Part shown: piece by piece, positions 7,230-32,233 of the stretch
Position numbering within the stretch: position 1 is the first letter of the stretch
Layout of the letters: each line of letters opens with the position of its first letter
NCBI GenBank assembly: GCA_947364365.1
Contig: CANASP010000010.1
Coordinates: forward strand, 1-64,000
DNA: 64,000 nt
Source: an uncultured Alistipes sp.
GTDB taxonomy: Bacteria > Bacteroidota > Bacteroidia > Bacteroidales > Rikenellaceae
Direction of reading: 5' to 3'
Notes under the pieces: model-generated
Seen by the model: only the letters and a program-made list of their open reading frames with translations
Databases searched by the model: none
Told to the model about the DNA's origin: nothing
Position numbers and translations under genes: made by a program

Positions 7230-7403
7230 ATTTTCGCCTGCGGCTCGTTGCGCGCTTTGCAGGTTGCGTCCGATTATGAATCTTTATTGAATAGAGGCGC
7301 TCTTCGGATTCCTCCGAAGAGCGGCAGCCCGCAGCCACTCCCGGCGGAGGGCTGCTCTTTTCGCGTTCGCTCGAAAAGCGCCCTTCCGCTGGCTGCTGGC
7401 CGC
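7230..7403 (-). repeat. Dispersed intergenic repeat, copy 1
   Basis: Member of a four-copy family described in the findings (others near 23.7, 24.8 and 32.2 kb). Read on the minus strand it carries a TTTTCG-rich hairpin (7357-7363 with 7372-7378), a GC-rich core at about 7324-7352 and a perfect 11-bp hairpin (7298-7308 with 7313-7323). Upstream similarity with copy 2 extends to about 7230. The 346-bp gap between the YtxH gene and the next gene holds this repeat, a promoter and no convincing gene; the short open frames across it are GC-bias shadows. Confidence 0.7.
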
Positions 7404-7444
7404 GAAACGACGTTGGATATGAAAAGAGTTTATTCCGTTTTACC

Positions 7445-7452
7445 TATATTTG
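7445..7452 (+). promoter_or_regulatory. Promoter -7 element directly before the SLOG protein gene
   Basis: TATATTTG matches TAnnTTTG exactly and ends six bases before the ATG at 7459, so the predicted transcript begins at or next to the start codon. Confidence 0.65.
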
Positions 7453-7458
7453 TATCCG

Positions 7459-7962
7459 ATGAACGCTTCACTACTGACCACCGTCGCCTTTACGGGCCAC
7501 CGCACCTACCGCGGCGAGGCCGCCGGCGAACTGTCCGGGCTCATAAGGCGGCTTCATGTCCGCGGCTTCCGCACGTTCCTCTGCGGCATGGCCGTCGGGT
7601 TCGATCTGGCGGCCGCCGAGGCGGTCGTCGCCTGCCGTGCGTCGCTGCCTGGCCTGCGCCTCGTCGCCGTCATCCCCTTCGAGGGGCAGGAACGGAGTTT
7701 TTCCGCCGCCGACCGGGCGCGCTATGCCCGCATGCGGGCCGCGGCCGACGGGGAGGTCGTCCTCGCCGCGGGCTACCATCCCGGCTGCTATGCCGTGCGC
7801 AACGACTACCTGGTCGACCATGCCGCTCTGGTCGTCGCCTGGTACGACGGCTCGGCGGGAGGCACGCACTACACCGTGCGTCGCGCCCTGCGCCGCGGCC
7901 GCGAGGTCGTGAGCCTCTGCCCGGCCTTTCCGCTCGCCTCCGCCGAGCCCTCGCTGTTCTGA
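7459..7962 (+). CDS. SLOG-superfamily protein (DUF1273/YpsA-like)
   Basis: 167 residues. It opens with TVAFTGHRTYRG, the G-x-R nucleotide-binding loop of the DUF1273/YpsA branch of the SLOG fold. It continues with RTFLCGMAVGFDLAAAEAV (G-x-A-x-G-x-D), LVAVIPFEGQE and, near the C-terminus, VVAWYDGSAGGTHYTVRRA. All are expected positions for this family, which is thought to bind nucleotides or nucleotide-derived ligands; YpsA of Bacillus affects cell division and DprA is a distant relative. The start at 7459 is chosen because the -7 promoter element ends at 7452, which excludes the TTG start at 7450. It is a single gene with no operon partner. Confidence 0.8.
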   Translation: MNASLLTTVAFTGHRTYRGEAAGELSGLIRRLHVRGFRTFLCGMAVGFDLAAAEAVVACRASLPGLRLVAVIPFEGQERSFSAADRARYARMRAAADGEVVLAAGYHPGCYAVRNDYLVDHAALVVAWYDGSAGGTHYTVRRALRRGREVVSLCPAFPLASAEPSLF

Positions 7963-8040
7963 CGGGGCCGCGGCGGAGTGTTTCGCAGGGAGTGTTCCCG
8001 TAAGGCTTGTCTCCCGTGCAAGAAGCCCTACCCGAATGCC

Positions 8041-9513
8041 TTATTGTTGCAGCAGCCGGTCGATCGCCTCGCGCGCAGCCGGGTCGCCCGGCCGCGGCGC
8101 ATCGTCGTCGACCAGCCGTCCCCGGCGGTCGAAGAGCAGCAGATGGGGGATGCGGCGGTGGCAGATCTCCTTGAGAAACCGACTGTTGTCGGCGTTGAGC
8201 ACGCGATAGTTGATCCCGTCGTGACTTTGGGTGGCGTAGGTATCCATGGCCCGCAGCCACGCTTCCCGCTCGTCTCCGACGGCCAGGTAGACGAATGCCG
8301 CGTCGCGTCCGGCGTAGGCCTCGCGCAGGGCCCGGGCCGCCGGCATCTCGCCGCAGCAGGGCCCGCACCACGAAGCCCACAGATCCACATAGACCACTTT
8401 GCCGCGGAGCGCCTGCATGACATCGGCCAGGTCGTGGCGCCTCCCGTCGCTCTCTTCGAGTACGAGGTCCAACGTGTATCCGTTTTCGAGGTGCGGTTTC
8501 CCTACGATCATCTCCGGCGTGTGGCTTTCGTCGCCCGTCAGCGCCATGTAGATGCGGTTGCAACTGTCGGCCAGTGCCGGAGGGTAGCTGTGCCAGCCGC
8601 CGTCGTTCGATGCGATGCGTTCCAGAAGATGGCGCAGGGCTGCGGCGCGGGCCGCGCGGCACATCGACGTGTCGGCCGCCAGCCGGCGGCACAGCGCCGG
8701 GGAGATCTCTTGCGGTCGGGGTGCGTAGGCCATCCGTCGCGTGAGATGGTGTACCGAGGGGTAGTGCAGCAGCGAGTCTACGCCGAGGTCCGCCTCCCGA
8801 CGGCCGTTTTGCGGGCGTAGGCTGCGGCGCAGGTGGTCGGCATGCGGCGCGGGAAGCGCTCCAGACCGCTCCAGCGAGTCGATCCGCGCGGCGAAGTCGG
8901 TCAGGTAGGCATCGAGGATCGCTCCCAGCGAATCGAGGTCGGGACAGAGCCGCGCGTACCGCTCCAGCTGCTCGCGGGGCTTCGTGCTGCGTGCGGGGTC
9001 GTGGAGCATCTTCCACATGAACCGGTAGCGCGGGTAGGTGCAGACGGTCTTCAGGGAGTACCCCGTCGGTGCGTGGACCGCCCGCGCGTCCTCCTCGGCG
9101 AGGTTGTAGCGTCGCGTGCGGAGCTCCGAGAGCAGGCTGCGCAGGCGGGGACGTCCCGTCGCGGCATAGGTGAAGAGCACCGTATCGCCGCCCTCCAGCA
9201 GGTAATAGATGTCTTCGGCAGCCTGGTTGCGGTGCATGATCTCGGCGTAGCCGCCCCATGCGGGTACCGTGAGCGTGTCGCGGCCCGTGAGCGGGGGCGT
9301 GTAGTGGCGCAGCGCACCGGTCGAATCCACGAAGTCGACGGTCGTGGCGGGCCCCACCGTCATGTTGCTGCCGAAACGGGAGGTCGATAGCTGGTTGGGG
9401 CAATCCTCGAAGACGATCACGACGCGGGAGCGGTCGGCCGGCTCGGCTTGCCCTGCCGTGCCGCACGACGTGCTTACAGCCAGCACGCACAATCCGAGCA
9501 ACAGTTTTTTCAT
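8041..9513 (-). CDS. TlpA-like thiol-disulfide lipoprotein, large
   Basis: 490 residues. The signal peptide ends in a lipobox (LAVSTSCG), so it is likely lipid-anchored. The first 350 residues are an extracytoplasmic helical region without a recognised domain; the last 130 are a thioredoxin domain with VVYVDLWASWCGPCCGEM. The active site is C-G-P-C followed directly by a third Cys, and RIPHLLLFD is the cis-proline strand. Proteins built this way are abundant in Bacteroidota and act as periplasmic or surface disulfide reductases for unknown clients. The gene stands alone, with a -7 element at 9530-9537 and a G9 tract beyond it. Confidence 0.8.
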   Translation of the reverse strand: MKKLLLGLCVLAVSTSCGTAGQAEPADRSRVVIVFEDCPNQLSTSRFGSNMTVGPATTVDFVDSTGALRHYTPPLTGRDTLTVPAWGGYAEIMHRNQAAEDIYYLLEGGDTVLFTYAATGRPRLRSLLSELRTRRYNLAEEDARAVHAPTGYSLKTVCTYPRYRFMWKMLHDPARSTKPREQLERYARLCPDLDSLGAILDAYLTDFAARIDSLERSGALPAPHADHLRRSLRPQNGRREADLGVDSLLHYPSVHHLTRRMAYAPRPQEISPALCRRLAADTSMCRAARAAALRHLLERIASNDGGWHSYPPALADSCNRIYMALTGDESHTPEMIVGKPHLENGYTLDLVLEESDGRRHDLADVMQALRGKVVYVDLWASWCGPCCGEMPAARALREAYAGRDAAFVYLAVGDEREAWLRAMDTYATQSHDGINYRVLNADNSRFLKEICHRRIPHLLLFDRRGRLVDDDAPRPGDPAAREAIDRLLQQ

Positions 9514-9529
9514 GGTATCGGGTTTGGCG

Positions 9530-9562
9530 CAAAGTTAACCATAAATTCCGGTCGGGGGGGGG
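9530..9562 (-). promoter_or_regulatory. Promoter -7 element with a G9 homopolymer in the -33 region
   Basis: On the minus strand TAACTTTG (9530-9537) lies 16 bp before the start of the thioredoxin lipoprotein gene. A run of nine G (nine C on the transcribed-sense strand) at 9554-9562 occupies the position expected for the -33 element. Confidence 0.55.
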
Positions 9563-9585
9563 TAGCGCGATTTTCTGCGAAAAAT

Positions 9586-9616
9586 TTTGCGGTTTCATAT
9601 TTTAGAGTTATCTTTG
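9586..9616 (+). promoter_or_regulatory. Consensus promoter of the tRNA-Pro gene
   Basis: TTTG (9586-9589), exactly 19 bp, then TATCTTTG (9609-9616): the best consensus promoter in the window. Transcription should begin around 9620, some 25 nt ahead of the mature tRNA. Confidence 0.8.
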
Positions 9617-9645
9617 TGCGCTCTTAAGGTCATAAGGGCTTTGTT

Positions 9646-9720
9646 CGGGGTGTAGCGCAGTCCGGTTAGCGCGCCAGCTTCGGGAGTTGGAGGTCGCTGG
9701 TTCGAATCCAGTCTCCCCGA
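9646..9720 (+). tRNA. tRNA-Pro (anticodon CGG)
   Basis: A complete 75-nt cloverleaf. Acceptor strand 9646-9652 pairs with 66-72 (positions 9713-9719), with one U-U mismatch at pair 6-67. The D arm has AGTCCGGTTAG; the anticodon stem CCAGC/GTTGG encloses loop TTCGGGA, giving anticodon CGG with G37; the T arm has TTCGAAT between GCTGG and CCAGT. The discriminator base is A at 9720 and the CCA end is not encoded. It is monocistronic, with its own promoter and terminator. It reads CCG proline codons, which are favoured in this GC-rich genome. Confidence 0.95.
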
Positions 9721-9733
9721 CAAATTCAAGGAG

Positions 9734-9761
9734 AGTCTCTGCATCGGCAGAGACTTTTTTT
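9734..9761 (+). terminator. Terminator of the tRNA-Pro gene
   Basis: A perfect 9-bp stem (9734-9742 with 9747-9755) with a 4-nt loop and a run of seven T ending at 9761. Confidence 0.9.
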
Positions 9762-9764
9762 GTA

Positions 9765-9772
9765 TACCTTTG
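9765..9772 (+). promoter_or_regulatory. Promoter -7 element for the TPR/HTH regulator gene
   Basis: TACCTTTG matches TAnnTTTG and follows the tRNA terminator directly; the ATG is 14 bp further on. No -33 TTTG is visible because that position falls inside the terminator stem. Confidence 0.55.
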
Positions 9773-9786
9773 TCCCGGGGTTTTAT

Positions 9787-11505
9787 ATGAAGGGTTTCCG
9801 ATATAGCGTCGTTTTGCTCGTCGCCGTCCATCTGGCGGCGCTGGCGCTGCCGTCGTGCCGTCGCGGCGCCCTTCCCCTGGGATGCGGCGGGGTGGCGGAC
9901 ACTGCGTTGCTGTCGGCGCTTCCGGGTGCCGACATGACCATCTGGAGTCTCTATCGCGACCGTAGGGACGACGACCGGAGTGCGGCGATGGAGTATGCGC
10001 GCATCTTCCTGCGCGGAGTCGACTCCTCGGCCGTCCATCCCGCCGTCGCGGCCGTGGCCGACAGCCTGGCCGAGTGGTGCGAGGAGAAAATCTTCCGCTA
10101 CTCCGAGGCGATTCGCCTGCGCGAGCGGTCGCTGCGCATCTACGAAGCGCTCGGCTGTCCCGACCGGGTCGCCGCCACGCGTTACCGCCTGGCCAGCCTC
10201 AATTGCCGCAAGGGATTCTACGACCGGACGCTGCGCTATGCGACCGAGGCCCTCGAATATTTCGAGGCCGAGGCCGACACGGCGCAGATGCTCGAATGCT
10301 ACAACCTGCTGGGCATCGTCCACGAATATTGCCGCGATCACGACCGCGCGAGTCTCTATTTCCGCAAATACGCTGCGGGAGCCCGCGAGACAGGCGACAG
10401 CCTGGGGTTGCTCATGGCGCTCAACAACGCCGCAGTCTGGGAAAACAACGATGCGCGCGATACGCTCAAGGCCCGGCGGCTCATCGGCGAATCGATCCGT
10501 CTGTGTCGCGAGTTGACCGATACGACCTACCTCTTCTCCATGTACATGAATCTGGTCAACTCCTATCTGAGCACCTACCAGCCCAACGAGGCGGCCTCGC
10601 TACTGGCGCAGATCGAGCCGCTCGCGCGCGACGTGCGGCAGAAGGGGCTTTACTGGTACCAGAGGGGCGGCTACCATTTCTACCGGGGCGAATACGCGCA
10701 GAGCGTCGAGGCGCTCGACAAGGCGATCGGCTACTTCCGTCAGGGTGAGTTCGAGCGCAACGTCATGGGGTGTCTGTCGGTGCTCCATGCTGCCTACAGC
10801 CGGCTGGGCCGCTACGACAAGGCCTATGCCGCCATGGTCGACTACTACGCCCTCGACGACGCTCGTTCGCGCGAGGATGTCTATCTCAAGCTCTTCAAGA
10901 CGCAGAACGAGATGATTCTCCACCGTCAGCAGGCCGAGTGGACGCGCCGGCGCAACCGCGTTCTCTTCGCCGGCACGGCTGCGGCGTTCGTCGTGGTCGT
11001 CGCCCTGCTGCTGTTCTACCTGCGCTACCGCCGGCATCGTTACGAGGTCGACCGGCGCGAGCACGAGTTGCGCACCCAGCGCGAACTGATGGAGGTCAAG
11101 CGCATGCAGCATTACCAGACCGAACGCCTGGTCGCCACCGTGATCGAGCGGCTCGGCAAGCTCAACCTGCGCGTGCGCGAGCAGGGGCTGCGCCGGGAGA
11201 TCGCCGCCATCTGCAACGATCTGCGCAGCGCCAACGACGAACCCTTGTGGCGTGATGTCGAGACGTTCGCCCCCGAGTTCGGCAGCGACAACTTCGCACG
11301 TCTGCTGCGCGACTATCCCAACCTGACTGTCAACGAGCGGCGTCTGTGTGCGCTGCTCAACAAAAATCTCACGACCAAGGAGATCTCGATGATTACCAAA
11401 CAGTCGGTGCACAGCATCACCATCGCCCGCAGTCGCCTGCGTGGCAAGTTCGGCCTGACGAACAGCCCGATCAGTCTCTACGAATTTCTTTCGCGCTACA
11501 ATTGA
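9787..11505 (+). CDS. Membrane-spanning TPR regulator with C-terminal helix-turn-helix
   Basis: 572 residues. An N-terminal signal segment with a possible lipobox (LALPSC) is followed by about 340 residues of TPR-like helical repeats, including ATRYRLASLNCRKGFYDRTL and ECYNLLGIVHEYC. A membrane helix lies at about residues 394-413 (VLFAGTAAAFVVVVALLLFY), then an Arg-rich stop-transfer and a coiled coil. The last 65 residues look like a LuxR/GerE-type HTH: LTVNERRLCALLNKNLTTKE, then IARSRLRGKFGL. The layout puts the TPR sensor in the periplasm and the DNA-binding part in the cytoplasm, a one-component architecture common in Bacteroidota. Four phased TGTATA repeats lie just after it, before a lipoprotein gene, which may be its target. 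Confidence 0.75.
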   Translation: MKGFRYSVVLLVAVHLAALALPSCRRGALPLGCGGVADTALLSALPGADMTIWSLYRDRRDDDRSAAMEYARIFLRGVDSSAVHPAVAAVADSLAEWCEEKIFRYSEAIRLRERSLRIYEALGCPDRVAATRYRLASLNCRKGFYDRTLRYATEALEYFEAEADTAQMLECYNLLGIVHEYCRDHDRASLYFRKYAAGARETGDSLGLLMALNNAAVWENNDARDTLKARRLIGESIRLCRELTDTTYLFSMYMNLVNSYLSTYQPNEAASLLAQIEPLARDVRQKGLYWYQRGGYHFYRGEYAQSVEALDKAIGYFRQGEFERNVMGCLSVLHAAYSRLGRYDKAYAAMVDYYALDDARSREDVYLKLFKTQNEMILHRQQAEWTRRRNRVLFAGTAAAFVVVVALLLFYLRYRRHRYEVDRREHELRTQRELMEVKRMQHYQTERLVATVIERLGKLNLRVREQGLRREIAAICNDLRSANDEPLWRDVETFAPEFGSDNFARLLRDYPNLTVNERRLCALLNKNLTTKEISMITKQSVHSITIARSRLRGKFGLTNSPISLYEFLSRYN

Positions 11506-11543
11506 TCCTATTTCTGTCTGTCGGTCAGCGTGTTATATTCGGT

Positions 11544-14212: not shown

Positions 14213-14225
14213 GGGTCACAGCGGA

Positions 14226-21571: not shown

Positions 21572-23506
21572 ATGGATAAGAAATCGATTGCAGGCATCGC
21601 CCTCGTGGCGGTGCTTTTCCTGGGCTTCGCCTACTTCAACAGCCGCGAGCAGCAGCGTTACGAACGGGAGGTCGCCGAGTGGCGTGCCTACCAGGACTCG
21701 CTGGCCGCCGCCGCAGCGCCCGCGCTTCCGCAGGCCGGGGACATTGCCGCCGGAGAGCTTCCCGATTCGGTGGCGCAGGCCGCCGAGCGCACGTCGCGCG
21801 TGGCGACGCTGGGCGAGTGGCTCGCCGCCGCCAGCGAGGGCGACCCTGAAACCATTGCGGTGGAGAACGATGTGATGCGGGTGCGCTTCTCGACGCAGGG
21901 CGGCCGCATCGTCGGCGTGACGCTCAAGGATTATACGCGCTACGCACCCCGCGGCCGGCGCGGCGAGGCCGTCGAGCTGATGGATCCCGCTTCGGCGCAG
22001 TTCGCCCTCGACTTCTACCTCAAACACGGGACGCGCAGCGTTCCGGTCCATACCGCCGACTACCTTTTCACGGCCGATCCCGTGCGCACGACGGCCGACG
22101 GGGCGCAGCTCGTGTCGTTCCGTCTGCCGGTGGCCGACGGGGCGCAGCTCGTCTACGAATACCGTCTTTACAAGGGTGCGGCGCCCGAGCGCGACTACCT
22201 GGTCGACTTCCGCGTGCGCATGGAGGGTATGGAGGCCGTGATGGCCGGCCAGTCGTCGCTCCGGATCGACTGGGCCAATACGACCTACCAGAACGAAAAG
22301 GGTTTCAAGAACGAGAACATGTATACCACGCTCGCTTACCGCCTTCCGGGCGAGAGCTCGATCGAGGAGTTGGGCATGAGCGAGGATACGCGTTCCAAGG
22401 CGCTGGGCAAGGCCGCCGACTGGGTCGCCTTCAAGCAGCAGTTCTTCTCGGCGGCCCTCATCGCGCCCGGGAGCTTCTCCGACGCCGATCTTTCGTTCGA
22501 GACCTTCCAGCCCGGTTCGGGGTATGTGAAGCGTTTCCATGCCCAGCTGACCGTGCCCTATGCGCCGCAGACCGAGGCCTATGATTTCGCCTTCTATTTC
22601 GGCCCCAACAAATACTCGATCCTCAAAAAGGTATCGGTGGGCGAGGTCGGAGAGGAGCTGGCGCTCGAGCGGTTGATTCCGCTGGGGTGGGGGATCTTCG
22701 GCTGGATCAACCGCTGGTGCGTGATCCCGGTCTTCGATCTGCTGCGCAACTCCGTCGGCAGCTTCGGCATCATCATCCTGATTCTCGCCGTGCTGATCCG
22801 TCTGGTCATCTCGCCGCTCACCTACAAGAGCTACGTCTCGATGGCCAAGATGCGTCTGGTGAAACCCGAGATCGACGAACTGACCAAGAAGTATCCCCGA
22901 CAGGAGGATGCCATGAAGCGCCAGCAGGCCACCATGGAGCTCTACCGCAAGGCGGGAATCAACCCCATGGGCGGCTGTATCCCGATGCTCATCCAGTTCC
23001 CGATCCTGATCGCCATGTTCCGCTTCTTCCCCGCAGCGATCGAGTTGCGCGACCAGGCCTTCCTCTGGGCCGACGATCTGTCGTCCTACGACAGCATCCT
23101 TGACCTGCCCTTCTCGATCCCCTTCTACGGCGATCATGTCTCGTTGTTCGCTTTGCTCATGGCGCTTTCGACCTTCGCCTTCTCCTACATCAACTACCAG
23201 CAGACGGCGTCGTCGCAGCCCCAGATGGCCGGCATGAAGTTCATGATGGTCTACCTGATGCCGGCCATGCTGCTCCTATGGTTCAACAGCTATTCGAGCG
23301 GCCTTTGCTGGTACTACCTGCTCTCCAACTTGCTGACGATCGGCCAGACCTTCGTCATCCGCCGTATGGTCGACGATACGAAGATCCGTGCGATCATGGA
23401 GGCCAACGCCGCCCGCAAGTCCAAGGGCAAGAAGTCGAAGTTCCAGCAGCGCTACGAGGAGCTCATGCGCCAGCAGGAGGCGGCCCAGCGCGCGAAGCGC
23501 AAGTAG
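21572..23506 (+). CDS. yidC: Membrane protein insertase YidC
   Basis: 644 residues, the long Gram-negative form. A membrane anchor (residues about 5-21, IAGIALVAVLFLGFAYF) is followed by the large periplasmic domain (about 80-380) and the five-helix insertase core. The core shows PLTYKSYVSMAKMRLVKPEI, the cytoplasmic hairpin with PMGGCIPMLIQFPILIAMF, and the late helices GMKFMMVYLMPAMLLLWFN and WYYLLSNLLTIGQTFVI. The C-terminus is Lys/Arg-rich, as in ribosome-binding YidC tails. It inserts inner-membrane proteins alone or with SecYEG. It is transcribed with pyrG and ends at a strong terminator. Confidence 0.96.
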   Translation: MDKKSIAGIALVAVLFLGFAYFNSREQQRYEREVAEWRAYQDSLAAAAAPALPQAGDIAAGELPDSVAQAAERTSRVATLGEWLAAASEGDPETIAVENDVMRVRFSTQGGRIVGVTLKDYTRYAPRGRRGEAVELMDPASAQFALDFYLKHGTRSVPVHTADYLFTADPVRTTADGAQLVSFRLPVADGAQLVYEYRLYKGAAPERDYLVDFRVRMEGMEAVMAGQSSLRIDWANTTYQNEKGFKNENMYTTLAYRLPGESSIEELGMSEDTRSKALGKAADWVAFKQQFFSAALIAPGSFSDADLSFETFQPGSGYVKRFHAQLTVPYAPQTEAYDFAFYFGPNKYSILKKVSVGEVGEELALERLIPLGWGIFGWINRWCVIPVFDLLRNSVGSFGIIILILAVLIRLVISPLTYKSYVSMAKMRLVKPEIDELTKKYPRQEDAMKRQQATMELYRKAGINPMGGCIPMLIQFPILIAMFRFFPAAIELRDQAFLWADDLSSYDSILDLPFSIPFYGDHVSLFALLMALSTFAFSYINYQQTASSQPQMAGMKFMMVYLMPAMLLLWFNSYSSGLCWYYLLSNLLTIGQTFVIRRMVDDTKIRAIMEANAARKSKGKKSKFQQRYEELMRQQEAAQRAKRK

Positions 23507-23531
23507 CCGACGCGCAGCGGCAATACTTCCG

Positions 23532-23566
23532 AAAATCCCCCGCACGTTTCGTGCGGGGGATTTTTT
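23532..23566 (+). terminator. Terminator after yidC
   Basis: A 13-bp perfect stem (about 23533-23545 with 23551-23563) rich in G/C, followed by six T. Confidence 0.9.
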
Positions 23567-23639
23567 GTCGGGGTGGGGCGGGCCGTAGTGCGGCTCTTTC
23601 GGGAGCCGGCGGGCCGCACCTCCGGCTGCGAAGGTCAAC

Positions 23640-23800
23640 AACTCGCTATCGTTCGTGCCGTCCTTCGCAGGTTGCGGCCCGAAGTTGGCGAACAATCTCT
23701 CTTTTCGATAGAAACTTGCGGCCCATCGGGCCGCGCAGCCAACTTCGGCGGGGCTGCTCTTCTCGCGTAGGCTCGAAAAGCCCCTCCGCTGGCCGTGGAC
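23640..23800 (-). repeat. Dispersed intergenic repeat, copy 2
   Basis: Similar to copy 1 over about 170 bp in the same orientation. It includes the CTCGAAAAG...CCGCTGG end (about 23772-23792), the core at 23735-23758 and a terminal hairpin, here a different 7-bp stem (23718-23724 with 23728-23734). The 375-bp gap after yidC holds its terminator and this repeat, with no convincing gene. Confidence 0.7.
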
Positions 23801-23881
23801 TGCTGGACGCCCCTTACAGGCGGCAACGAAAAACGCGGGCCGTTGCCGGTCCGCGTATCTTTGCCGTATGTCGCCTCGCCG

Positions 23882-24727
23882 TTACCGTCGATCGAACCCT
23901 GCCGAGACGAACGTCAGCACGTCGGGCAGCGCCGTCTGCCAGTAACGCCAGTTGTGGCTGCCGTCGCGCATGCGGAATTCGAGCGGAATGGCATGCTTGC
24001 GCATCAGCGCGTAGAAACGGATGTTGCCCTCCCACAGGTAGTCGTCGTCGCCGCAGTCGACCCGCCAACGGACGCTGCGCAGCGCTTGGGCCTGCTCCTC
24101 GGTGAGATTTTCCAGGAGCCGGATCGGGCTCGTCGCATCGACCGAGGCGGCGAACTCCTGCTGTCGCAGCCGTCCGTCGTCGATCGTCATCAGCGCGCTG
24201 AGCGGACACGACGCCGCGAAGAGTTCGGGGTGTCGCTGGGCGTATGCCGTCGCACCTCCGCCGCCCATCGAGAGCCCCGCAATGGCCCGGTTGGGCTTGT
24301 CGCCCGCGATGCGGTAGTGGCGCTCCACGGCGGGCAGGAACTCCTCGAAGAAGAAGCGCTCGTAGGGCCATCCCGTCTGGTCGAAATAACCCATGTGGGG
24401 CCCCATGTTGTTGGCGTCGTCGCCCGAGGCGTCGGGCATCACGACGATCATCTCCACGGCGCGTCCTTCGGCAATGGCCTCGTCGACGATCTGCCGCATG
24501 TTGCCCTTGCGGCTCCACGCCGTGTGGTCGTCGCTGGCGCCGTGGAGCAGGTAGAGCACCGGATAGCGGCGCTCGCTGCGGTCGTATCCGTCGGGCAGGT
24601 AGACCGAGCACTGTTTTTCGCGCCCGAGCAGCGCGCTCTCCACGGTGAAGGTCTCCACGCGGCTCTGCGCCGCCGCGCTTGCGGCGCAGCATGCGGCGGC
24701 CGCCAGGATGAGCAGAAGTCGTTTCAT
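23882..24727 (-). CDS. Secreted alpha/beta-hydrolase esterase
   Basis: 281 residues with a signal peptide (cleavage after AAAQ or nearby). The alpha/beta hydrolase body shows YPVLYLLHGASDDHTAW (oxyanion strand), VVMPDA, and the nucleophile elbow IAGLSMGGGGA with the catalytic Ser. The probable His is in GSHNWRYW near the end, with the Asp in between. It belongs to the esterase D/feruloyl-esterase-like group common in carbohydrate-degrading Bacteroidota; the natural ester is unknown. It is monocistronic and no glycan-utilisation genes flank it. Confidence 0.85.
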   Translation of the reverse strand: MKRLLLILAAAACCAASAAAQSRVETFTVESALLGREKQCSVYLPDGYDRSERRYPVLYLLHGASDDHTAWSRKGNMRQIVDEAIAEGRAVEMIVVMPDASGDDANNMGPHMGYFDQTGWPYERFFFEEFLPAVERHYRIAGDKPNRAIAGLSMGGGGATAYAQRHPELFAASCPLSALMTIDDGRLRQQEFAASVDATSPIRLLENLTEEQAQALRSVRWRVDCGDDDYLWEGNIRFYALMRKHAIPLEFRMRDGSHNWRYWQTALPDVLTFVSAGFDRR

Positions 24728-24779
24728 ATTTATAATAGTTTAATGCTCCTTTTTCGGCCCGCGGGGGACGCATGCGGGC

Positions 24780-24852
24780 GGATGCGAGGGGCGCGGCCCT
24801 CCGCCGGGGATGGCTGCGGGCCGCCGCTCTTCAAGTCCCGAAGAGCGGCCGT
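24780..24852 (+). repeat. Dispersed intergenic repeat, copy 3
   Basis: Core at 24794-24823 and a perfect 10-bp hairpin (24824-24833 with 24841-24850, loop of 7). This is the copy closest to copy 1 in its core. It fills most of the gap between the esterase and RlmI-type genes. Confidence 0.75.
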
Positions 24853-24863
24853 TTTCGCAACCC

Positions 24864-26063
24864 TTATTCTACGTAAAGCACCAGCCCCTTGAGGTATTCG
24901 CCTTCGGGGTGGTAGATGTTGATCGGATGGTCGGCCGGCTGCGTGAGCTGGTGGAGGATGCGCACCTTGCGTCCGGCGATCGCCGCGGCGGAGAAGACCG
25001 TCGTGCGGAACAGCTCCTTCGACACGGCCTGCGAGCACGAGAAGGTGAAGAGGATGCCGCCCGGCCGGATCTGCGCCAGCGCGCGGGCGTTGAGCCGCTT
25101 GTAGCCCTGCATGGCGTTGCCCAGCACCTTGTGGTGTTTGGCGAAGGCCGGCGGGTCGAGGATGATCAGGTCGTAGCGGTCGCCGATGTCGCGCAGGTAC
25201 TCCACCGCGTCGGCAGCCACCTCGGTGTGGGCCGCTCCCTCGCCGAAGTTCAGCCGCATGTTCTCGGCCGCCAGCGCCACGGCCCGCTCCGACGAGTCGA
25301 CCGAGCAGACCTCCTTCGCGCCGCCCGAGAGGGCGTAGACCGAGAAGCCGCCCGTGTAGCAGAAGGTGTTGAGCACCGTCCGTCCCTTGGCGTAGCGCTT
25401 CACCAGCTCGCGGTTCTCGCGCTGGTCGAGGAAGAAGCCGGTCTTCTGCCCCTTCTCCCAGTTGACCAGAAAGCGCTCGCCGTTCTCCACGACGACCTGC
25501 GACGCATCGTCGGCCCGCCCCCACAGATAGCCGTCGACGGCGTTGAGCCCCGCCTTGAAGGGGACCGTCTGCGACGACTTGTCGTAGATGGCCGTGATGC
25601 GCCCGCCGTAGACCGCGCGGATCGCCGCGGCGATCTCCATGCGCGCGCGGTACATACCCACCGAGTGGCATTGCACGACGGCCGTCGTGCCGTAGATGTC
25701 GACCACCAGCCCCGGCAGCGAGTCGCCCTCGCCGTGGACGAGCCGGTAGCAGGTCGTCGCGGCGTTGTCGGTGAGCCCCAGCGTGCGCCGCACGTCGTGG
25801 GCGATCTCCAGACGCCGGTTCCACCACGCCTGGTCGATCTCCTCCTCGTCGAAGGTGAGTACCCGCACGGCGATCGAGCCGATCTGGTAGTGGCCGCGGG
25901 CGATGAATTCGCCCGTGTGGGTGTAGGCGTCGACTACGGCCCCTTCGGCGATGTCGGCCTCCTCCTCGGCGCGTATGTGATCGATGGCGCCCGAGAAGAT
26001 CCAGGGGTGACGGCGGCGGAGCGACTCCTCCTTGCCGCGTCGGAGGTAAATTTGCGGTGTCAT
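24864..26063 (-). CDS. Class I 23S rRNA methyltransferase, RlmI-like
   Basis: 399 residues. An N-terminal PUA-like domain (1-75, LRRGKEESLRRRHPWIF) precedes an RlmI central region and a Rossmann-fold methyltransferase. The SAM motif is NTFCYTGGFSVYALSGGAKE, the catalytic block is DLIILDPPAFAKHHK (DPPxF), and TFSCSQ carries the Cys. RlmI methylates C5 of a cytosine in 23S rRNA (position 1962 in E. coli); this exact site is assumed by family. The start at 26063 overlaps the upstream exonuclease stop by four bases (ATGA), indicating translational coupling; the longer open frame upstream is the exonuclease gene's shadow. Confidence 0.85.
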   Translation of the reverse strand: MTPQIYLRRGKEESLRRRHPWIFSGAIDHIRAEEEADIAEGAVVDAYTHTGEFIARGHYQIGSIAVRVLTFDEEEIDQAWWNRRLEIAHDVRRTLGLTDNAATTCYRLVHGEGDSLPGLVVDIYGTTAVVQCHSVGMYRARMEIAAAIRAVYGGRITAIYDKSSQTVPFKAGLNAVDGYLWGRADDASQVVVENGERFLVNWEKGQKTGFFLDQRENRELVKRYAKGRTVLNTFCYTGGFSVYALSGGAKEVCSVDSSERAVALAAENMRLNFGEGAAHTEVAADAVEYLRDIGDRYDLIILDPPAFAKHHKVLGNAMQGYKRLNARALAQIRPGGILFTFSCSQAVSKELFRTTVFSAAAIAGRKVRILHQLTQPADHPINIYHPEGEYLKGLVLYVE

Positions 26064-26814: not shown

Positions 26815-28746
26815 CGGAATTATTTCCAATTTCCCGTCGTCGCGGCTGCGGATTTTCCCCTCTTCGAGCAATTGGCGCAGCAGGGCCGCGGTGCGTGCGG
26901 GATCGCCCCCGACCGCGTCGCATAGCGCATGGGGATCGGCCGCTCCGGCGGCGAGCCGTTCCAGTAGCGGGTCGCGCAGCGATCGGTCGCTCCCGTCGTC
27001 GTGTTGCCGTTTCGCGGCCCGGCGGCGCGCCAGGCAGACGTCGCACACGCCGCACGGCGTCGCCTGGTCGCCCGCGCCGAAGTAGCGTTCGATGACCGTG
27101 CTGCGGCACTCCTCGTCGTTGGCGGCGTAGGCTATCATCTGGGCGAAGCGCTCGCGCATGAGCTCCTGGCGCCGCCGGTAGGTCTCGGGGGCGATGTAGA
27201 GGTCGGCGCGCGGCAGCCGCTCCTCGTCCATGTAGAGTATCGGCGAGCGGTTGGAGGGGATGTAGCGGATCAGACGCAGCTGCCAGAGCCGCTTGAGCAG
27301 CTCGCGCACCCGTTCGGGCGTGTAGCCGCTCCAGGTCGCCAGCTCGCCCTCGTCGATGGGGCGGAAGTCGGTGAATATGCCGTTGTAGAGGCGCAGCAGC
27401 GTGCGGATGAAGTGGTCGAGCTCGTCACGGCGCAGGCGCACCTTGTACAGGTCGTCGCGGCTCACGCAGAACATCACCCGCGCGGGGTTCTCCTGCGCGT
27501 CGGTCAGGGTCATGTAGCCGTTCTGCTGGAGGAGCTTCAGCGCGCTCTGCACCGTTCCTCCGTAGAGGTGCTCGCGGGCGCAGAAGTCGTGGATGTTGAA
27601 TAGCATGGCCGACTGCGCCCCTTCGCCGATGCCGATTTGCAGATACGAGCAGATCCGTTCGTAGATATCCTTGATCTTGTCGAGCGGCGGAAACTCCTGC
27701 TCGAACCGCCGCGCGATACGCTGCTCGTCGTCGGAGGCCACGAGCAGCAGGGCGTAGGCGCGCTGTCCGTCGCGTCCCGCGCGCCCGGCCTCCTGGTAGT
27801 AGCTCTCCAGCGAGTCGCACATGGCGTAGTGGACCACGAAACGCACGTCGGGTTTGTCGATGCCCATGCCGAAGGCGTTGGTCGCCACCACGACGCGCAC
27901 CCGCCCCGCGATCCACTCCTCCTGGCGGAGCGACCGCTCGGCATGGCCCATGCCGCCGTGGTAGGCCGCGGCCGTGATCCCCTCGCCGCGCAGCAGGTCG
28001 GCCACCTGCTCGGTCGCCTCGCGCGTGCGGACGTAGACGATGCCCGACCCCGCGACGTTGCGCACCAGCCGCAGCAGCTGGCCGTTCTTGTCGTCGGTGC
28101 GGCGCACGCTGTAGGAGAGGTTGGGTCGCGCGAAGCTGCTGCGCAGCAGGTGTTTCTCGGCGAAGCGCAGGTGGTGCATGATGTCCTCGGCCACCTTGGG
28201 CGTGGCCGAGGCGGTGAGCGCCAGCACGGGCACCCCCGGCAGCTTCTCGCGCAGCTCGGCGATGCGCAGGTACGAGGGGCGGAAGTCGTAGCCCCACTGC
28301 GAGATGCAGTGGGCCTCGTCAACGGCCAGCAGCGAGACGTTCATCCGCACCACGCGCAGCCGGAATGCCTCCGACGCGAGCCGCTCGGGGGCTACGTAGA
28401 GAAACTTCACGTCGCCGTAGACGCAGTTGTCGAGCGCGATGTCGATCTGGCGCGGCGAGAGTCCCGAGTGGATCGCCACGGCCGGGATGCGTCGTGCCCG
28501 CAGCCGGTCGACCTGGTCCTTCATCAGGGCGATCAGGGGCGTGACGACGATGCAGAGCCCCTCGCGGGCCATCGTCGGCACCTGGTAGGTCAGCGACTTG
28601 CCGCCTCCGGTGGGCATCAGCGCCAGCGTGTCGCGCCCCTCCATCGCCGCGCGGACGATCTGCTCCTGCACGGGACGGAAGGTGTCGAACCCCCACCAGC
28701 GCTTCAGCGCGCCGTATATGCGTTCGGTCTCCTGCTGCGGTTCCAT
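26812..28746 (-). CDS. recQ: ATP-dependent DNA helicase RecQ
   Basis: 644 residues. Helicase motifs are in order: motif 0 FRPVQEQIV, Walker A MPTGGGKSLTYQVP, Ia TPLIALMKDQV, DEAH box AVDEAHCISQWGYDFRP, III LTASATP, then IV-VI with ATNAFGMGIDKPDVR and YQEAGRAGRDG. The zinc-binding site of the RQC region is ECRSTVIERYFG plus CGVCDVC. The end is a winged-helix-like segment; an HRDC domain is not evident. The ATG at 28746 is used because a -7 element ends four bases upstream; the frame continues for 36 codons beyond it. RecQ unwinds recombination intermediates and stalled forks. Confidence 0.93.
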   Translation of the reverse strand: MEPQQETERIYGALKRWWGFDTFRPVQEQIVRAAMEGRDTLALMPTGGGKSLTYQVPTMAREGLCIVVTPLIALMKDQVDRLRARRIPAVAIHSGLSPRQIDIALDNCVYGDVKFLYVAPERLASEAFRLRVVRMNVSLLAVDEAHCISQWGYDFRPSYLRIAELREKLPGVPVLALTASATPKVAEDIMHHLRFAEKHLLRSSFARPNLSYSVRRTDDKNGQLLRLVRNVAGSGIVYVRTREATEQVADLLRGEGITAAAYHGGMGHAERSLRQEEWIAGRVRVVVATNAFGMGIDKPDVRFVVHYAMCDSLESYYQEAGRAGRDGQRAYALLLVASDDEQRIARRFEQEFPPLDKIKDIYERICSYLQIGIGEGAQSAMLFNIHDFCAREHLYGGTVQSALKLLQQNGYMTLTDAQENPARVMFCVSRDDLYKVRLRRDELDHFIRTLLRLYNGIFTDFRPIDEGELATWSGYTPERVRELLKRLWQLRLIRYIPSNRSPILYMDEERLPRADLYIAPETYRRRQELMRERFAQMIAYAANDEECRSTVIERYFGAGDQATPCGVCDVCLARRRAAKRQHDDGSDRSLRDPLLERLAAGAADPHALCDAVGGDPARTAALLRQLLEEGKIRSRDDGKLEIIP

Positions 28747-28750
28747 GCCG

Positions 28751-28758
28751 CAAAGGTA
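28751..28758 (-). promoter_or_regulatory. Promoter -7 element of recQ
   Basis: On the minus strand TACCTTTG, four bases before the recQ ATG. Implies a leaderless or nearly leaderless mRNA. Confidence 0.65.
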
Positions 28759-28821
28759 CGCAATTCGCCATGCGCTCCGAAGGTTCGTTCCGAAAAAATT
28801 GCCCGTTCCGGAAAAAATCCG

Positions 28822-28829
28822 TAAATTTG
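28822..28829 (+). promoter_or_regulatory. Promoter -7 element of the Cys/His-rich protein operon
   Basis: TAAATTTG, exact TAnnTTTG match, five bases before the ATG at 28835. The divergent recQ promoter is 64 bp away. Confidence 0.65.
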
Positions 28830-28834
28830 TCCCG

Positions 28835-29275
28835 ATGAAATTCCGGCGGATCATATCGTTGCTCCTGCTGGCCGTCTATCTGGTCATGGCGGTCGGGCCC
28901 GCCGTGCGCTCGCTTTCGTGCAAGTGCGTGGCGATGTCGGTCCATGCCTGCCATACCCATCATCACTGCGATTCGGGCTGCCGTGCGCATGCGTGCGAGT
29001 TGTCCGATGCCGGTTGCGGGGCGTCGACGGCCTCCGTCGCGGCTCCCTGCTGCGATGACCGCCATTCCACCGAGATCGAACTCTACACCGGCAGTTCCGA
29101 GTCCGAACGCCACCTCCGTTGCGTCGTGACGCTCCTTCCGGCCTCGCTGGCCGCCGAGTGCCCGTGTCCGGCCCTTTTCGCGCTGCACCGCCGGCCCGTG
29201 CTGCCGCCCGTCCCATGCGCCGCCGATGCCGCCGTGGGCGCTTTCGGGCTGCGTGCCCCTCCCGTATTGGTCTGA
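28835..29275 (+). CDS. Cys/His-rich exported protein, first gene of a putative metal operon
   Basis: 146 residues. The signal segment (ISLLLLAVYLVMAVGPA) is followed by a dense metal-ligand cluster: CKC, CHTHHHCDSGC, HACELSDAGC and PCCDDRH, about a dozen Cys and several His in residues 29-80. The remainder is a tail with VTLLPASLAAECPCP. No family was recognised. The composition suggests a periplasmic or surface protein binding copper, zinc or a similar soft metal, or a redox-regulated disulfide protein. It starts five bases after a -7 element and lies 63 bp upstream of a TonB receptor and then an HMA protein gene, which supports a metal role. Confidence 0.65.
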   Translation: MKFRRIISLLLLAVYLVMAVGPAVRSLSCKCVAMSVHACHTHHHCDSGCRAHACELSDAGCGASTASVAAPCCDDRHSTEIELYTGSSESERHLRCVVTLLPASLAAECPCPALFALHRRPVLPPVPCAADAAVGAFGLRAPPVLV

Positions 29276-29338
29276 TCCCCGAGCGCGGGTGCCCGTGAGG
29301 CACCTGCCCTGCGAAGTTTCAACCAAATACGAGAATCG

Positions 29339-31696
29339 ATGAAAATCAAACTGTTTTTATTGCTTTTCGGATCGCTGCTGTGCGGGTCGCTCCGTGCGCA
29401 GGATCTCCGCGGCGTCGTGCGCGACGCCGACAACCAGCCGCTTCCCGGCGCCTCGGTCTACTGGGCCGGAACGACCATCGGCGCGGCCTGCGACGCCTCG
29501 GGTGCCTACCTGGTCCACCGCGTCAAGAACCACGACCTGCTGGTCGCCTCGTTCCTGGGTTATGTCAACGACACGGTGCGCGTCGCCGCAGGTGCCGACC
29601 GCGTCGAGTTCGCACTCCGCACCGACGGTGTGGAGCTCGAATCGGTCGTCGTCGAAGGCAACCAGAGCGGCAACTACATCAAGCGCGACGGCATTCTCAA
29701 GGGCGAGATGATCTCGTTCGCCGGCCTGTGCAAGATGGCCTGCTGCAACCTGGCCGAATCGTTCGAAAACTCGGCTTCGGTCACGGTGGGCTACAGCGAC
29801 GCCATCTCGGGCGCGCGTCAGATCAAGATGCTGGGTCTCGCCGGCACCTACACCCAGATCCTCGACGAGAACCGTCCCATCATGCGCGGCCTGAGCGCCC
29901 CCTACGGCCTGAGCTACACGCCGGGCATGTGGCTCAACTCGATCCAGGTGTCGAAGGGCGTCTCGTCGGTCACGGCGGGTCACGAGGCCATCACGGGCCA
30001 GATCAACCTCGAACACCGCAAGCCTACCGACGAGGAGCGTCTGTTCGTCAACCTCTACCTCGACGACGAGCTGCGCCCCGAGGCCAACATCTCCACGGCC
30101 TTCCCCGTCACCAAGGACAAGAAGCTCACCAGTGTTCTGCTGCTCCACGGCTCGATGGATACCGACGTGCGCAAGATGGACCACAACCACGACCATTTTC
30201 GCGACCTGCCCAAGGCCGACCAGATCAACGTGGCCAACCGCTGGCTCTATGCGGCCGACAACGGCACGCAGATCCGCTGGGGCTGGAAGTTCGTGCAGGA
30301 GAATCGCCTGGGCGGCATGATGGACTACAAGCGCTCGATGCGCGAGCGGATGACCACCGACTGGGACAAGCCCGGAACGCTCTACGGCTCGCACATCCGC
30401 AACCGCGGCGTCAACGGCTACTTCAAGCTGGGCACCCCCGTGGGTCCCTCGGTGTGGGACGCCGACGAGCAGGACGAGCAGCGTTCCAACATCGCCCTGG
30501 TGGTCGACTTCGACCACTTCAACGAGGCGGCCTACTTCGGTCTGAACGATTACAGCGGCAACGAGAACTCGCTTTCGGCCAACCTGATGTACGCCCACTA
30601 CTTCACCTACCGATCGTCGCTCAACGTCGGTGTGCAGGGCCACTTGCAGTACTACCGCGAGCGTTTGGCCAACCCCACGCCGTGGATCGCCGATGCCGCG
30701 CTGCGCACCTACGACCTCGGTCGCGAGGAGCAGGAGGCGGGCGCCTATGCCGAGTACACCTATAACATCAAGGACAAGTTCTCGCTCGTGGCGGGCCTGC
30801 GCGGCGACTACAACTTCTACTACGACCGCTTCTTCGTCACTCCGCGCGGCCACATCAAGTGGAATATCGCGCCGCTGACCATCCTGCGCGCCTCGGCCGG
30901 TCTGGGCTATCGCTCGACCAACGTCATTACGGACAATATCGGCATGCTGGCCACGGGCCGTCGTATCATCCTCCCGGGCCGCGACGGTCACGGGCTCGAC
31001 GGGCGCATTCCGGCCGACTTCGCCGACTTCGACCGCATGGAGAAGGCCCTGACGGTGGGCGGAAGCCTCTCGCAGACCTTCACGCTCGTGCAGTCGGAGG
31101 ACGCCACGCTGAGCTTCGACTACTTCCGCACGCAGTTCTACAACGGCGTGGTCGCCGACCAGGAGTACGACCCCACGGCCGTCTGCCTCTACTCGACCGA
31201 CGGGCGCTCCTACACCGACACCTACCAGATCGACTTCTCGTGGACGCCCGTCGAGCGGCTCGATATCTTCGCCACGTTCCGCTACACCGATTCGTCGATG
31301 ACCGTTCTGCGTCCCGACGGTACCGAGGCGCATGTCGAACGTCCGCTGGTGAGCGAGTACAAGACGCTGCTCAACATCCAGTACGCCACCAAGTTCCGTC
31401 GCTGGGTCTTCGACGCTACGGCCCAGCTCAACGGCCCTTCGCGCATCCCGACGCAGACGGGCGACCTGGCCGACAGCTACCACTCGCCCCGCTACCCGAT
31501 GTTCTACGCCCAGGTGAGCCGCAAGGTGGGCAAGTTCGACATCTATGTCGGCTGCGAGAACATCGCCGACTACCGTCAGAAGGATCCCATCCTTCATGCC
31601 GACGCCCCCTTCTCCACGGGTTTCAACTCCATGAATGTCTGGGGACCGCTCATGGGCCGCAAGTTCTACGCCGGCCTGCGCTTCAACCTCTATTGA
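29339..31696 (+). CDS. TonB-dependent receptor with carboxypeptidase-like N-terminal domain
   Basis: 785 residues. The signal peptide (FGSLLCGSLRAQ) is followed by a CarboxypepD_reg-like domain (about 22-100: DLRGVVRDADNQPLPGASVY). The plug holds CKMACCNLAESFENSASVTV, ISGARQIKMLGLAGTYTQIL and GHEAITGQINLEHRKP. A beta barrel fills the rest, ending with the aromatic GLRFNLY. The plug's extra Cys residues (KMACCNL) are typical of this receptor type found beside HMA-domain genes in Bacteroidota, which is thought to transport metal or a metal complex. The next gene starts 28 bp later. Substrate is not determinable from sequence. Confidence 0.88.
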   Translation: MKIKLFLLLFGSLLCGSLRAQDLRGVVRDADNQPLPGASVYWAGTTIGAACDASGAYLVHRVKNHDLLVASFLGYVNDTVRVAAGADRVEFALRTDGVELESVVVEGNQSGNYIKRDGILKGEMISFAGLCKMACCNLAESFENSASVTVGYSDAISGARQIKMLGLAGTYTQILDENRPIMRGLSAPYGLSYTPGMWLNSIQVSKGVSSVTAGHEAITGQINLEHRKPTDEERLFVNLYLDDELRPEANISTAFPVTKDKKLTSVLLLHGSMDTDVRKMDHNHDHFRDLPKADQINVANRWLYAADNGTQIRWGWKFVQENRLGGMMDYKRSMRERMTTDWDKPGTLYGSHIRNRGVNGYFKLGTPVGPSVWDADEQDEQRSNIALVVDFDHFNEAAYFGLNDYSGNENSLSANLMYAHYFTYRSSLNVGVQGHLQYYRERLANPTPWIADAALRTYDLGREEQEAGAYAEYTYNIKDKFSLVAGLRGDYNFYYDRFFVTPRGHIKWNIAPLTILRASAGLGYRSTNVITDNIGMLATGRRIILPGRDGHGLDGRIPADFADFDRMEKALTVGGSLSQTFTLVQSEDATLSFDYFRTQFYNGVVADQEYDPTAVCLYSTDGRSYTDTYQIDFSWTPVERLDIFATFRYTDSSMTVLRPDGTEAHVERPLVSEYKTLLNIQYATKFRRWVFDATAQLNGPSRIPTQTGDLADSYHSPRYPMFYAQVSRKVGKFDIYVGCENIADYRQKDPILHADAPFSTGFNSMNVWGPLMGRKFYAGLRFNLY

Positions 31697-31724
31697 TTCC
31701 GAAAACCTTCAAACTTATCGTATT

Positions 31725-32051
31725 ATGAAAAAACTGGTATTGTTCTGCCTCGCGACCCTGCTGGGTGCCGGCATCTGTATGGCCGCCAAGCCCGAAGCGG
31801 GCAAGAAAACGGCGAAGACCGTGTTCGTCACCGACATCGACTGCGAGCACTGCGTCAAGAAGATCATGGACAACGTCCCCTCGCTCGGCAAGGGCGTGAA
31901 GGACGTCGAGGTCGACCTCAAGAAGAAGGAGGTCACCGTGACCTACGACCCCACGAAGACCAACGATGCCCAGCTCGTCCGCGGTTTCGCCTCGCTCCGC
32001 GTGCAGGCCGAGCCCAAGGCCGAGCAGCCGAAGGCCGCTGCCAAGAAGTAG
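31725..32051 (+). CDS. Exported heavy-metal-associated (HMA) domain protein
   Basis: 108 residues. The signal peptide ends around GICMAAK. One HMA domain follows (about 32-95) with the metal-binding loop TDIDCEHCVKKI (CxxC as C-E-H-C) and the VDLKKKEVTVTYDP strand pair. The Lys/Ala-rich tail has PKAEQPKAAAKK. This is the fold of copper chaperones and ATPase N-domains, but here exported, so it probably handles Cu(I) or another soft metal in the periplasm. It is the last gene of the operon, before a strong terminator, and completes a pathway of Cys-rich protein, outer-membrane receptor and periplasmic binder. Confidence 0.88.
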   Translation: MKKLVLFCLATLLGAGICMAAKPEAGKKTAKTVFVTDIDCEHCVKKIMDNVPSLGKGVKDVEVDLKKKEVTVTYDPTKTNDAQLVRGFASLRVQAEPKAEQPKAAAKK

Positions 32052-32070
32052 GCGGTCGTCGCCTCTGCCG

Positions 32071-32106
32071 AAAAAGGCTGCACCCTGTGAGGGGTGCAGC
32101 CTTTTT
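32071..32106 (+). terminator. Terminator of the Cys/His-rich - TonB - HMA operon
   Basis: 15-bp inverted repeat (32071-32085 with 32092-32106) with flanking A and T runs; functional in both directions in principle. Confidence 0.9.
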
Positions 32107-32144
32107 CAGTAGGGGGCTCGTCGGAGCCGTGCGGGCCGCAGCCG

Positions 32145-32233
32145 GCGGAGACGCTTTTCGAGCCGGGCGAGATGAGCGGCCCTCCGCGCCGGGAGGTTGC
32201 GGGCCGCCACGCTGCGGATAACCCGTAGCGTGA
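32145..32233 (+). repeat. Dispersed intergenic repeat, copy 4
   Basis: Has the CTTTTCGAGC end (32153-32163), the core at 32176-32207 and a hairpin at the same place as the others but with a different stem: 32208-32217 with 32223-32232, ten pairs including one G-U. A partly inverted second core lies just upstream at about 32129-32150. Confidence 0.7.

What the first reader, a model, noticed from the sequence alone, without database searches (positions are those of the whole stretch)
7230..32233. Four-copy dispersed intergenic repeat with a hairpin whose stem sequence changes but is preserved
Copies at about 7230-7403 (minus), 23640-23800 (minus), 24780-24852 (plus) and 32145-32233 (plus) share a GC(A/G)GCCC...CCGCCGG...GCTGCGG core and, at the same place after it, a hairpin. 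The hairpin sequences differ: 11 bp (7298-7323), 7 bp (23718-23734), 10 bp (24824-24850) and 10 bp with one G-U (32208-32232). Different sequences keeping a stem suggests selection on the structure. Copies 1, 2 and 4 also share a TTTTCGAGC end. All copies lie in gaps between genes. It could be a miniature mobile element, a REP-like structure for mRNA ends or a regulatory RNA. I know no named family that fits.
Basis: seen in the sequence. Interest (0 to 1): 0.7.

Follow-up and report, generated by a model that had tools for sequence, protein, structure and literature searches.

The report
Mosaic palindromic repeat family in Alistipes
The four look-alike stretches belong to a family of short, foldable DNA repeats, over a hundred copies in gaps between genes of this gut bacterium, that seem to move about and swap their hairpin parts, with no mover identified.

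Summary
The repeat is real and far larger than four copies. A covariance model finds 143 matches (131 at E≤0.01) in the window's 2.15 Mb genome. A broader model finds it in 24 of 180 genus genomes, own included, and in none of 394 other genomes sampled from the phylum (shallow). The unit is a ~75-nt core: helices P1 and P2 with a one-sided 6-7-nt bulge and a variable apical region P3. A hairpin P5 abuts it. It pairs 7/7 in 34 of 38 copies from 24 genomes, with compensatory changes. Copies are unoriented to genes, convergent-rich, often tandem, and absent from some orthologous gaps. Best reading: a non-autonomous REP/BIME-like mosaic mobile repeat. No RAYT gene (0 of 41 genomes), no GTAG/CGTC tag; mover unknown. 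Main rival: recombination plus template switching without selection on the fold.

The parts
7295..7403 (-). Copy 1, core plus P5 (type GCAGCCC/GGGCTGC)
   Evidence: R1 109.5 bits, R2 82.7 bits; s2-s3 7/7
7349..7355 (-). s2 of copy 1 (GCAGCCC)
   Evidence: sequence
7324..7330 (-). s3 of copy 1 (GGGCTGC), complementary to s2
   Evidence: sequence
7298..7323 (-). P5 hairpin of copy 1, 11 pairs
7179..7275 (.). possible relic of a further copy downstream of copy 1; strand unclear
   Evidence: weak R2 matches on both strands
23712..23803 (-). Copy 2; s2 present, s3 replaced by the hairpin 23718-23734
   Evidence: R1 46.3 bits; s2-s3 3/7
23588..23682 (-). Fifth, diverged copy, 29 nt downstream of copy 2 in the same orientation
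24747..24850 (+). Copy 3; 3' half intact (s2 24793-24799, s3 24818-24824, P5 24824-24850), 5' half not recognisable
   Evidence: R1 53 bits
32131..32235 (+). Copy 4, core plus P5 (s2 32176-32182, s3 32201-32207, P5 32208-32232)
   Evidence: R1 82.2 bits

Best explanation
A genus-restricted family of non-autonomous, mosaic, palindromic interspersed repeats that behaves like REP/BIME or MITE elements but has its own anatomy. SHOWN here: copy number, anatomy, s2-s3 complementarity kept through paired changes across species, exchange of hairpin modules at core edges, presence/absence at some orthologous gaps, and near-identical cores at non-orthologous places of sister species. INFERRED: the core spreads in trans by an enzyme not identified here that reads the folded single strand (ssDNA or RNA); copies able to fold are the ones that spread, which keeps P1, P2 and s2-s3 complementary; recombination between cores swaps flanking hairpins; copies persist mostly where they do least harm, in gaps and above all between gene ends. 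s2-s3 cannot easily coexist with a straight P1-P2 stack, so it is either an alternative state (a switch) or needs the bulge to fold P1 back beside P2; this geometric point is reasoning, not modelled.
For: 143 matches in one genome on at least 27 of 38 contigs (147 fetched matches). Cores 95-97% identical between G012 and several non-orthologous G171 places while neighbouring orthologous stretches are 85-92% identical. Blocks with a core missing at orthologous gaps of G073, G170 and G171 and, for the window's yidC gap, of L078, L082, L085, L087. Same downstream module with and without the core. No orientation bias and 50 of 125 classed copies convergent, against 9 of 41 neighbouring gene pairs in the window (my count on the gene list). 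27 of 34 close neighbours in the same orientation. s2-s3 7/7 in 34 of 38 copies of 24 genomes though no model contained these pairs. G-T mismatches exceed A-C in P0+P1+P2 of the own genome (156 to 53) and in P4 across the genus (9 to 1), as expected if that strand folds.
Against: No mover found; only Y1_Tnp and recurrence of neighbouring genes were tested. No sharp insertion edges and no target-site duplication seen. No recent burst in the own genome: best-partner identity has median 87%. 47 of 147 own matches are not 7/7 in s2-s3, and 11 of a TCTC variant lack s3. G-T against A-C is 30 to 25 for P4 and 27 to 43 for P5 in the own genome, so a folded strand is not shown for these. No replication-strand bias (67 to 80; weak test).
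Confidence: 0.5

Rival explanations
1. No transposition machinery: an old repeat reshuffled by homologous recombination between cores and by replication template switching (quasipalindrome correction), which makes hairpin arms match without selection on any fold.
For: Module exchange at core edges; synteny break at the G012 C36:16409 copy, whose two flanks match different, internal stretches of G171; the nearer pair s2-s3 matches better than the farther s1-s3; no G-T excess in own-genome P4 and P5.
Against: The one-sided 6-7-nt bulge persists in 138 of 147 own and 38 of 38 genus copies, which correction should tend to erase; G-T excess in P0-P2 and in genus-wide P4; copy numbers differ greatly between species of the genus; cores are inserted singly among other modules.
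Confidence: 0.22
2. A cis-acting RNA at transcript ends: P5, sometimes followed by T-rich sequence, ends transcription or protects 3' ends, and the core is a regulatory fold.
For: T is enriched 3-6 nt after P5 (up to 51% own, 58% genus); G012 P5 types CCGTTNNNAACGGGGTTTT look like terminators; convergent gaps enriched; the one terminator-like site of 23400-24900 is the copy 2 hairpin.
Against: No co-orientation with genes (23 with, 33 against). The terminator-like count in 23400-24900 equals chance (1 found, 1.3 expected), and in 31900-32400 no site falls in copy 4. By eye other stem-loops with T runs already follow the upstream genes (about 23540-23566 and 32069-32106; the scan did not list these). 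No Rfam family at gathering score; the only weak overlap is 6C RNA on the opposite strand of one copy, 32.7 bits against a cut-off of 47.
Confidence: 0.12
3. A chromosomal DNA site bound by a nucleoid protein or gyrase, as described for some REP/BIME elements (recalled; also in the start of the abstract of PMC2817692, search listing).
For: Dispersed, unoriented, mostly extragenic, clustered.
Against: Copy number ranges from none detected to over 100 between species of one genus (searches capped), hard to square with a needed site. Protein binding was not testable here.
Confidence: 0.08

Closest known systems
REP / BIME elements, GTAG and CGTC families (PMC3733652: outline with abstract, one passage)
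   Same: High copy, palindromic, mostly extragenic, found between unidirectional and convergent genes, clustered into mosaics; CGTC families also lack a dedicated transposase and one passage lists Bacteroidetes among their hosts.
   Different: Core of about 75 nt plus abutting hairpin instead of 20-40 bp; no GTAG or CGTC tag at the edges; no Y1 (RAYT) gene in 41 genus genomes; neighbours mostly in the same orientation (27 of 34) while the abstract says opposite for many REP families; extra s2-s3 complementarity.
MITEs of bacteria, e.g. BrickBuilt of Porphyromonas gingivalis (PMC5771137, passages only)
   Same: Short, non-coding, non-autonomous, dispersed in a Bacteroidales genome.
   Different: No target-site duplication seen, no parent transposon found; the inverted ends differ by the one-sided bulge. 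BrickBuilt sequence was not compared here.
Integron attC sites (recalled)
   Same: Imperfect stem of two boxes, unpaired stretch, variable tip, neighbours exchanged at one edge.
   Different: Copies not in gene-cassette arrays; bulge on one side only; s2-s3 pairing. Integrase was not searched for.

Membership tests
REP (GTAG/CGTC) elements | GTAG or CGTC tag at one edge | tested here: not met
   Of 147: GTAG 2 and 2 at the two edges, control 4; CGTC 14 and 9, control 7
REP (GTAG/CGTC) elements | high copy, extragenic, palindromic | tested here: met
REP (GTAG/CGTC) elements | unit of 20-40 bp | tested here: not met
   core about 75 nt, model match about 80-110 nt
RAYT-mobilised REPIN | Y1 transposase (PF01797) in the genome or genus | tested here: not met
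   0 of 41 genus genomes, own included; control found it in 5 of 14 named genomes. Own assembly 87% complete
MITE | target-site duplication | tested here: inconclusive
   no clean empty site; insert blocks larger than the core
MITE | parent element with transposase | tested here: inconclusive
   no gene family beside more than three loci among 328 predicted proteins; only own genome and only near copies
Rfam RNA families | match at gathering score | tested here: not met
   window: only a tRNA; L005, L061, L064, L091: three sub-threshold hits
Intrinsic terminator | GC-rich hairpin plus T run, oriented with the upstream gene | tested here: not met
   no orientation bias; T enrichment only partial
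Integron attC | tyrosine integrase and cassette array | not tested
   integrase not searched; copies not in arrays of cassettes in the loci read
TnpB/IscB guide RNA | TnpB or IscB partner | not tested

The most novel reading that the evidence does not exclude
The core is a mobile structured switch: s3 toggles between closing the long hairpin (with s1) and a pseudoknot (with s2), and an unknown enzyme uses that fold, as RNA or single-stranded DNA, to copy the core next to hairpins and to exchange hairpin modules. It would be a bacterial mobile-repeat system without RAYT whose recognition element is a pseudoknot.
Probability: 0.15. Interest if true: 0.85.

Novelty: new variant of a known kind. 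Interest (0 to 1): 0.52.

Why it matters
High-copy palindromic repeats shape bacterial genomes, and the best-understood ones depend on RAYT transposases (PMC3733652, abstract). This family is abundant in part of one common gut genus, has a different and covarying fold, no RAYT gene detected, and visibly trades hairpin modules. If the fold is what the mover reads, it offers a route to a mobility enzyme not yet described. If not, it is a natural test case for how far template switching and recombination can mimic compensatory evolution.

Tried and rejected
Known RNA family: Rfam at gathering score (window) and by E-value on four loci gave nothing on the repeat's own strand; 6C RNA matched the opposite strand of the L005 copy below its cut-off. 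RAYT/REP: rejected on gene and tag. Autonomous copy with its own gene: no gene family recurs beside more than three loci. Replication-strand bias: 67 to 80, p 0.32, a weak test because strand was inferred from GC skew of partial contigs. Intrastrand triplex repeats (PMC4666352, passages): s1, s2 and s3 are not homopurine (read from sequence). HDV-like ribozyme: considered from memory; helix order differs and unpaired core bases are not strictly conserved. Phage origin: one viral contig holds the GCGGGCC-type pattern, none the own-genome type; by eye the hit lies near a tRNA-like stretch and is probably host flank. A GGGGTTTT direct repeat around G012 cores was considered as target duplication and dropped because it also precedes cores with other P5 hairpins. 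Papers: the searches listed no description of this repeat; the library lacks most subscription journals. Seen of papers: PMC8040213, PMC5771137 and PMC4666352 passages; PMC3733652 outline with abstract and one passage; the rest listings only.

Rows dropped or limits: of A4's 42 rows, four antisense readings of palindromic copies were left out (38 kept), but not. One search also left out rows with fewer than 5 P4 pairs, a filter that counts G-T as paired. One search's second table kept 124 of 147. One search used copies with a P5 hairpin for composition (119 of 147; 38 of 42) and looked only for starts 0-4 nt after s3. The 147 matches of A2 contain four overlapping opposite-strand pairs (overlaps 3-72 nt); at least the L021 pair (72 nt) is probably one copy read twice. 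Three own-genome matches at E 3e-4 to 6e-4 (C8:71103, C1:121724, C38:1625) and weaker ones were not fetched. Of one search's 147, 22 were not classed (13 in ORFs, 9 at edges). In one search three of 23 stretches showed no core by the strict pattern. The 5'-side junction count printed is an empty slice and is not used. A3, from which R2 was built, holds two antisense readings among 51 rows.
Full report
WHAT IS THERE. The four stretches are members of one repeat family. With copy 1 as query, blastn gave 47 matches, partial ones included, in the window's genome (40 of 119 candidates scored). Thirty copies were aligned (A1) and made into a covariance model (R1). R1 found 143 matches at E≤1 in the 2.15 Mb assembly, 131 at E≤0.01 (150 of 3300 first-look candidates scored, so possibly a lower bound). 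In 97 own-genome sources 147 matches at E≤0.01 were aligned (A2); four pairs of these overlap on opposite strands, and at least one pair is probably one palindromic copy read twice. The window holds five: 7295-7403(-), 23712-23803(-), 23588-23682(-), 24747-24850(+), 32131-32235(+), and perhaps a relic near 7179-7275.

ANATOMY. 5' to 3': s1 (about CGGnCC), P1a (GCAGCC plus one), P2a (GCGGAGG in most own copies), a variable apical region P3 (in own copies often with GAGC-nnnn-GCGA), s2 (GCRGCCC in most own copies), P2b (TCCGC), a G-rich bulge of 6-7 nt (138 of 147 own copies, 38 of 38 genus copies), P1b (TGGCTGC), s3 (GGGCYGC), then hairpin P5. P5 was found in 119 of 147 own copies and 38 of 42 genus rows, against 10 of 147 shuffled own tails; in 117 of the 119 it starts 0-2 nt after s3.

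THE s2-s3 PAIRING. s3 can pair with s1, extending P1, or with s2, crossing P1 and P2. In the 30 training copies s2-s3 pairs in 100% of cells with letters, with both-sided changes at three of seven positions and none at four; s1-s3 pairs in 88.9%, both-sided changes at one of six. In A2 s2-s3 pairs in 91.4% of cells and s1-s3 in 82.3%. 100 of 147 are 7/7 and 89 are fully Watson-Crick in six types; the mean of 6.16 pairs exceeds all 1000 shuffles (maximum 5.82). Against it: 47 of 147 are not 7/7; 11 copies of a TCTC variant lack s3; one of five measures does not exceed its shuffles (pairs with both-sided change, 143 of 500 as high). Across 24 genomes 34 of 38 copies are 7/7 (27 fully Watson-Crick), in types GCGGGCC, GCGAGCC, GCGGCCC, GCAGCCC, GCAGTCC and, with one G-T, GCGCGCC; 20 of 24 genomes have at least one such copy. 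The models held no s2-s3 pairs, so the alignments were not fitted to them. Shuffle counts are not probabilities, because copies are related.

WHICH STRAND. If one strand folds, G-T mismatches should be tolerated over A-C. Own genome: P0+P1+P2 156 to 53, P4 30 to 25, P5 27 to 43. Genus: P4 9 to 1, P1+P2 10 to 3, P5 3 to 1 (small numbers). So the modelled strand is favoured for the long hairpin; the evidence is mixed for P4 and goes the other way for P5 in the own genome.

MODULES. In G012 and G171, cores that are nearly the same carry entirely different P5 hairpins and different left neighbours, and these recur in other combinations (20 of 23 stretches shown). The hairpin CCGTTNNNAACGGGGTTTT occurs 43 times in G012. 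Of the 30 loci read (my classification) 10 have it as P5 of a core, 7 inside a core at P3, 4 directly after a sequence ending in ATGACG with no core (two of them CTCAGAATGACG), and 9 touch partial, antisense or no cores. One set shows the same downstream stretch with the core (L308, L061) and without it (L327). In the own genome the P5 type CGCTTCGG/CCGAAGCG is more faithful: 25 of 27 places lie at a model match, 23 at E≤0.01. So stems that change sequence and stay stems come at least in part from exchange of whole hairpins.

MOBILITY. In G012 a block with a core is missing at the orthologous gap of G073 and replaced by other sequence in G170; another is missing in G171. The gap after yidC is short and without a match in L078, L082, L085 and L087, whereas the window has two copies there; L091 has one right after its yidC stop, before another neighbour gene (gene identity by eye). 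Core 5257-5355 of L256 is 95-97% identical to four non-orthologous G171 places while neighbouring orthologous stretches are 85-92% identical. The two flanks of the G012 copy at C36:16409 match different contigs in G171, G073 and G007; in G171 both places are well inside contigs and the right one starts beside another copy. Edges are not sharp and no target duplication was seen. Own copies have a median best-partner identity of 87% over at least 80 nt (138 of 147 have such a partner), so there is no recent burst in the own genome.

CONTEXT. With a crude codon-usage gene caller 125 of 147 matches could be classed: 50 convergent, 33 against and 23 with two same-direction genes, 19 divergent; 13 overlapped an ORF and 9 were at locus edges. 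In the window 9 of 41 neighbouring called genes are convergent (my count on that list). Copy 2 and the fifth copy lie between yidC (PF02096) and an esterase gene (PF00756), copy 3 between that gene and a methyltransferase gene (PF10672), copy 4 between an HMA-domain gene and an ORF with a metallo-beta-lactamase-fold domain. Of 34 neighbours closer than 400 nt, 27 share orientation; 15 of these 27 tandem pairs end in a GCGGGCC-type unit.

DISTRIBUTION. R1: 3 of 61 genomes, own included, all of the genus. R2: 24 of 180 genus genomes, own included. In a sample of 395 genomes of the phylum only the own matched (ten candidates scored per genome, so weak or rare copies could be missed). Record titles: L091 is an uncultured Alistipes MAG (isolate Lapin-003-2); its coordinates agree with G196. 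G076 and G075 have contigs of the same length as two MAGs labelled Alistipes senegalensis.

MECHANISM. I commit to a non-autonomous mobile mosaic repeat whose mover is unidentified and probably reads the folded strand; rivals and tests are in the fields. The search for a mover was narrow: Y1_Tnp only and recurrence of neighbouring genes.

NOVELTY. It works like REP/BIME or MITE repeats but fails the tested marks of GTAG/CGTC REPs and RAYT systems, so I rate it a new variant of a known kind. That no description was found holds only for the searches.

Noticed in passing
L191 583-873: Three short tandem units sharing GGCTCCGGGCTGTGCGGCTC...GAGCCGC, apparently truncated 3' halves of the core with P5.
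   Followed up: no
own genome, e.g. L170:1646-1748, L191:163-262, L207:1501-1598: Variant of the core (11 of 147) in which s3 is replaced by TCTCYGC, which resembles the P2b strand; six of these stand directly upstream of a GCGGGCC-type unit.
   Followed up: partly
L075 893-1142 (G012): A stretch of about 250 nt recurs at about 70% identity at many places of several genus genomes, beside the repeat modules.
   Followed up: no
G012 loci, e.g. L299, L301, L327: A second palindromic repeat, ATTCTTCG...CTCAGAATGAC, in either orientation beside the cores; I recall similar motifs from other bacteria, no call tested this.
   Followed up: no
L285 240-271: A viral contig (IMGVR_UViG_3300010163_000185) carries one GCGGGCC-type core near a tRNA-like stretch, perhaps host flank of a provirus.
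   Followed up: no
window 9646-9720: A tRNA gene, the only Rfam match of the window at gathering score.
   Followed up: no
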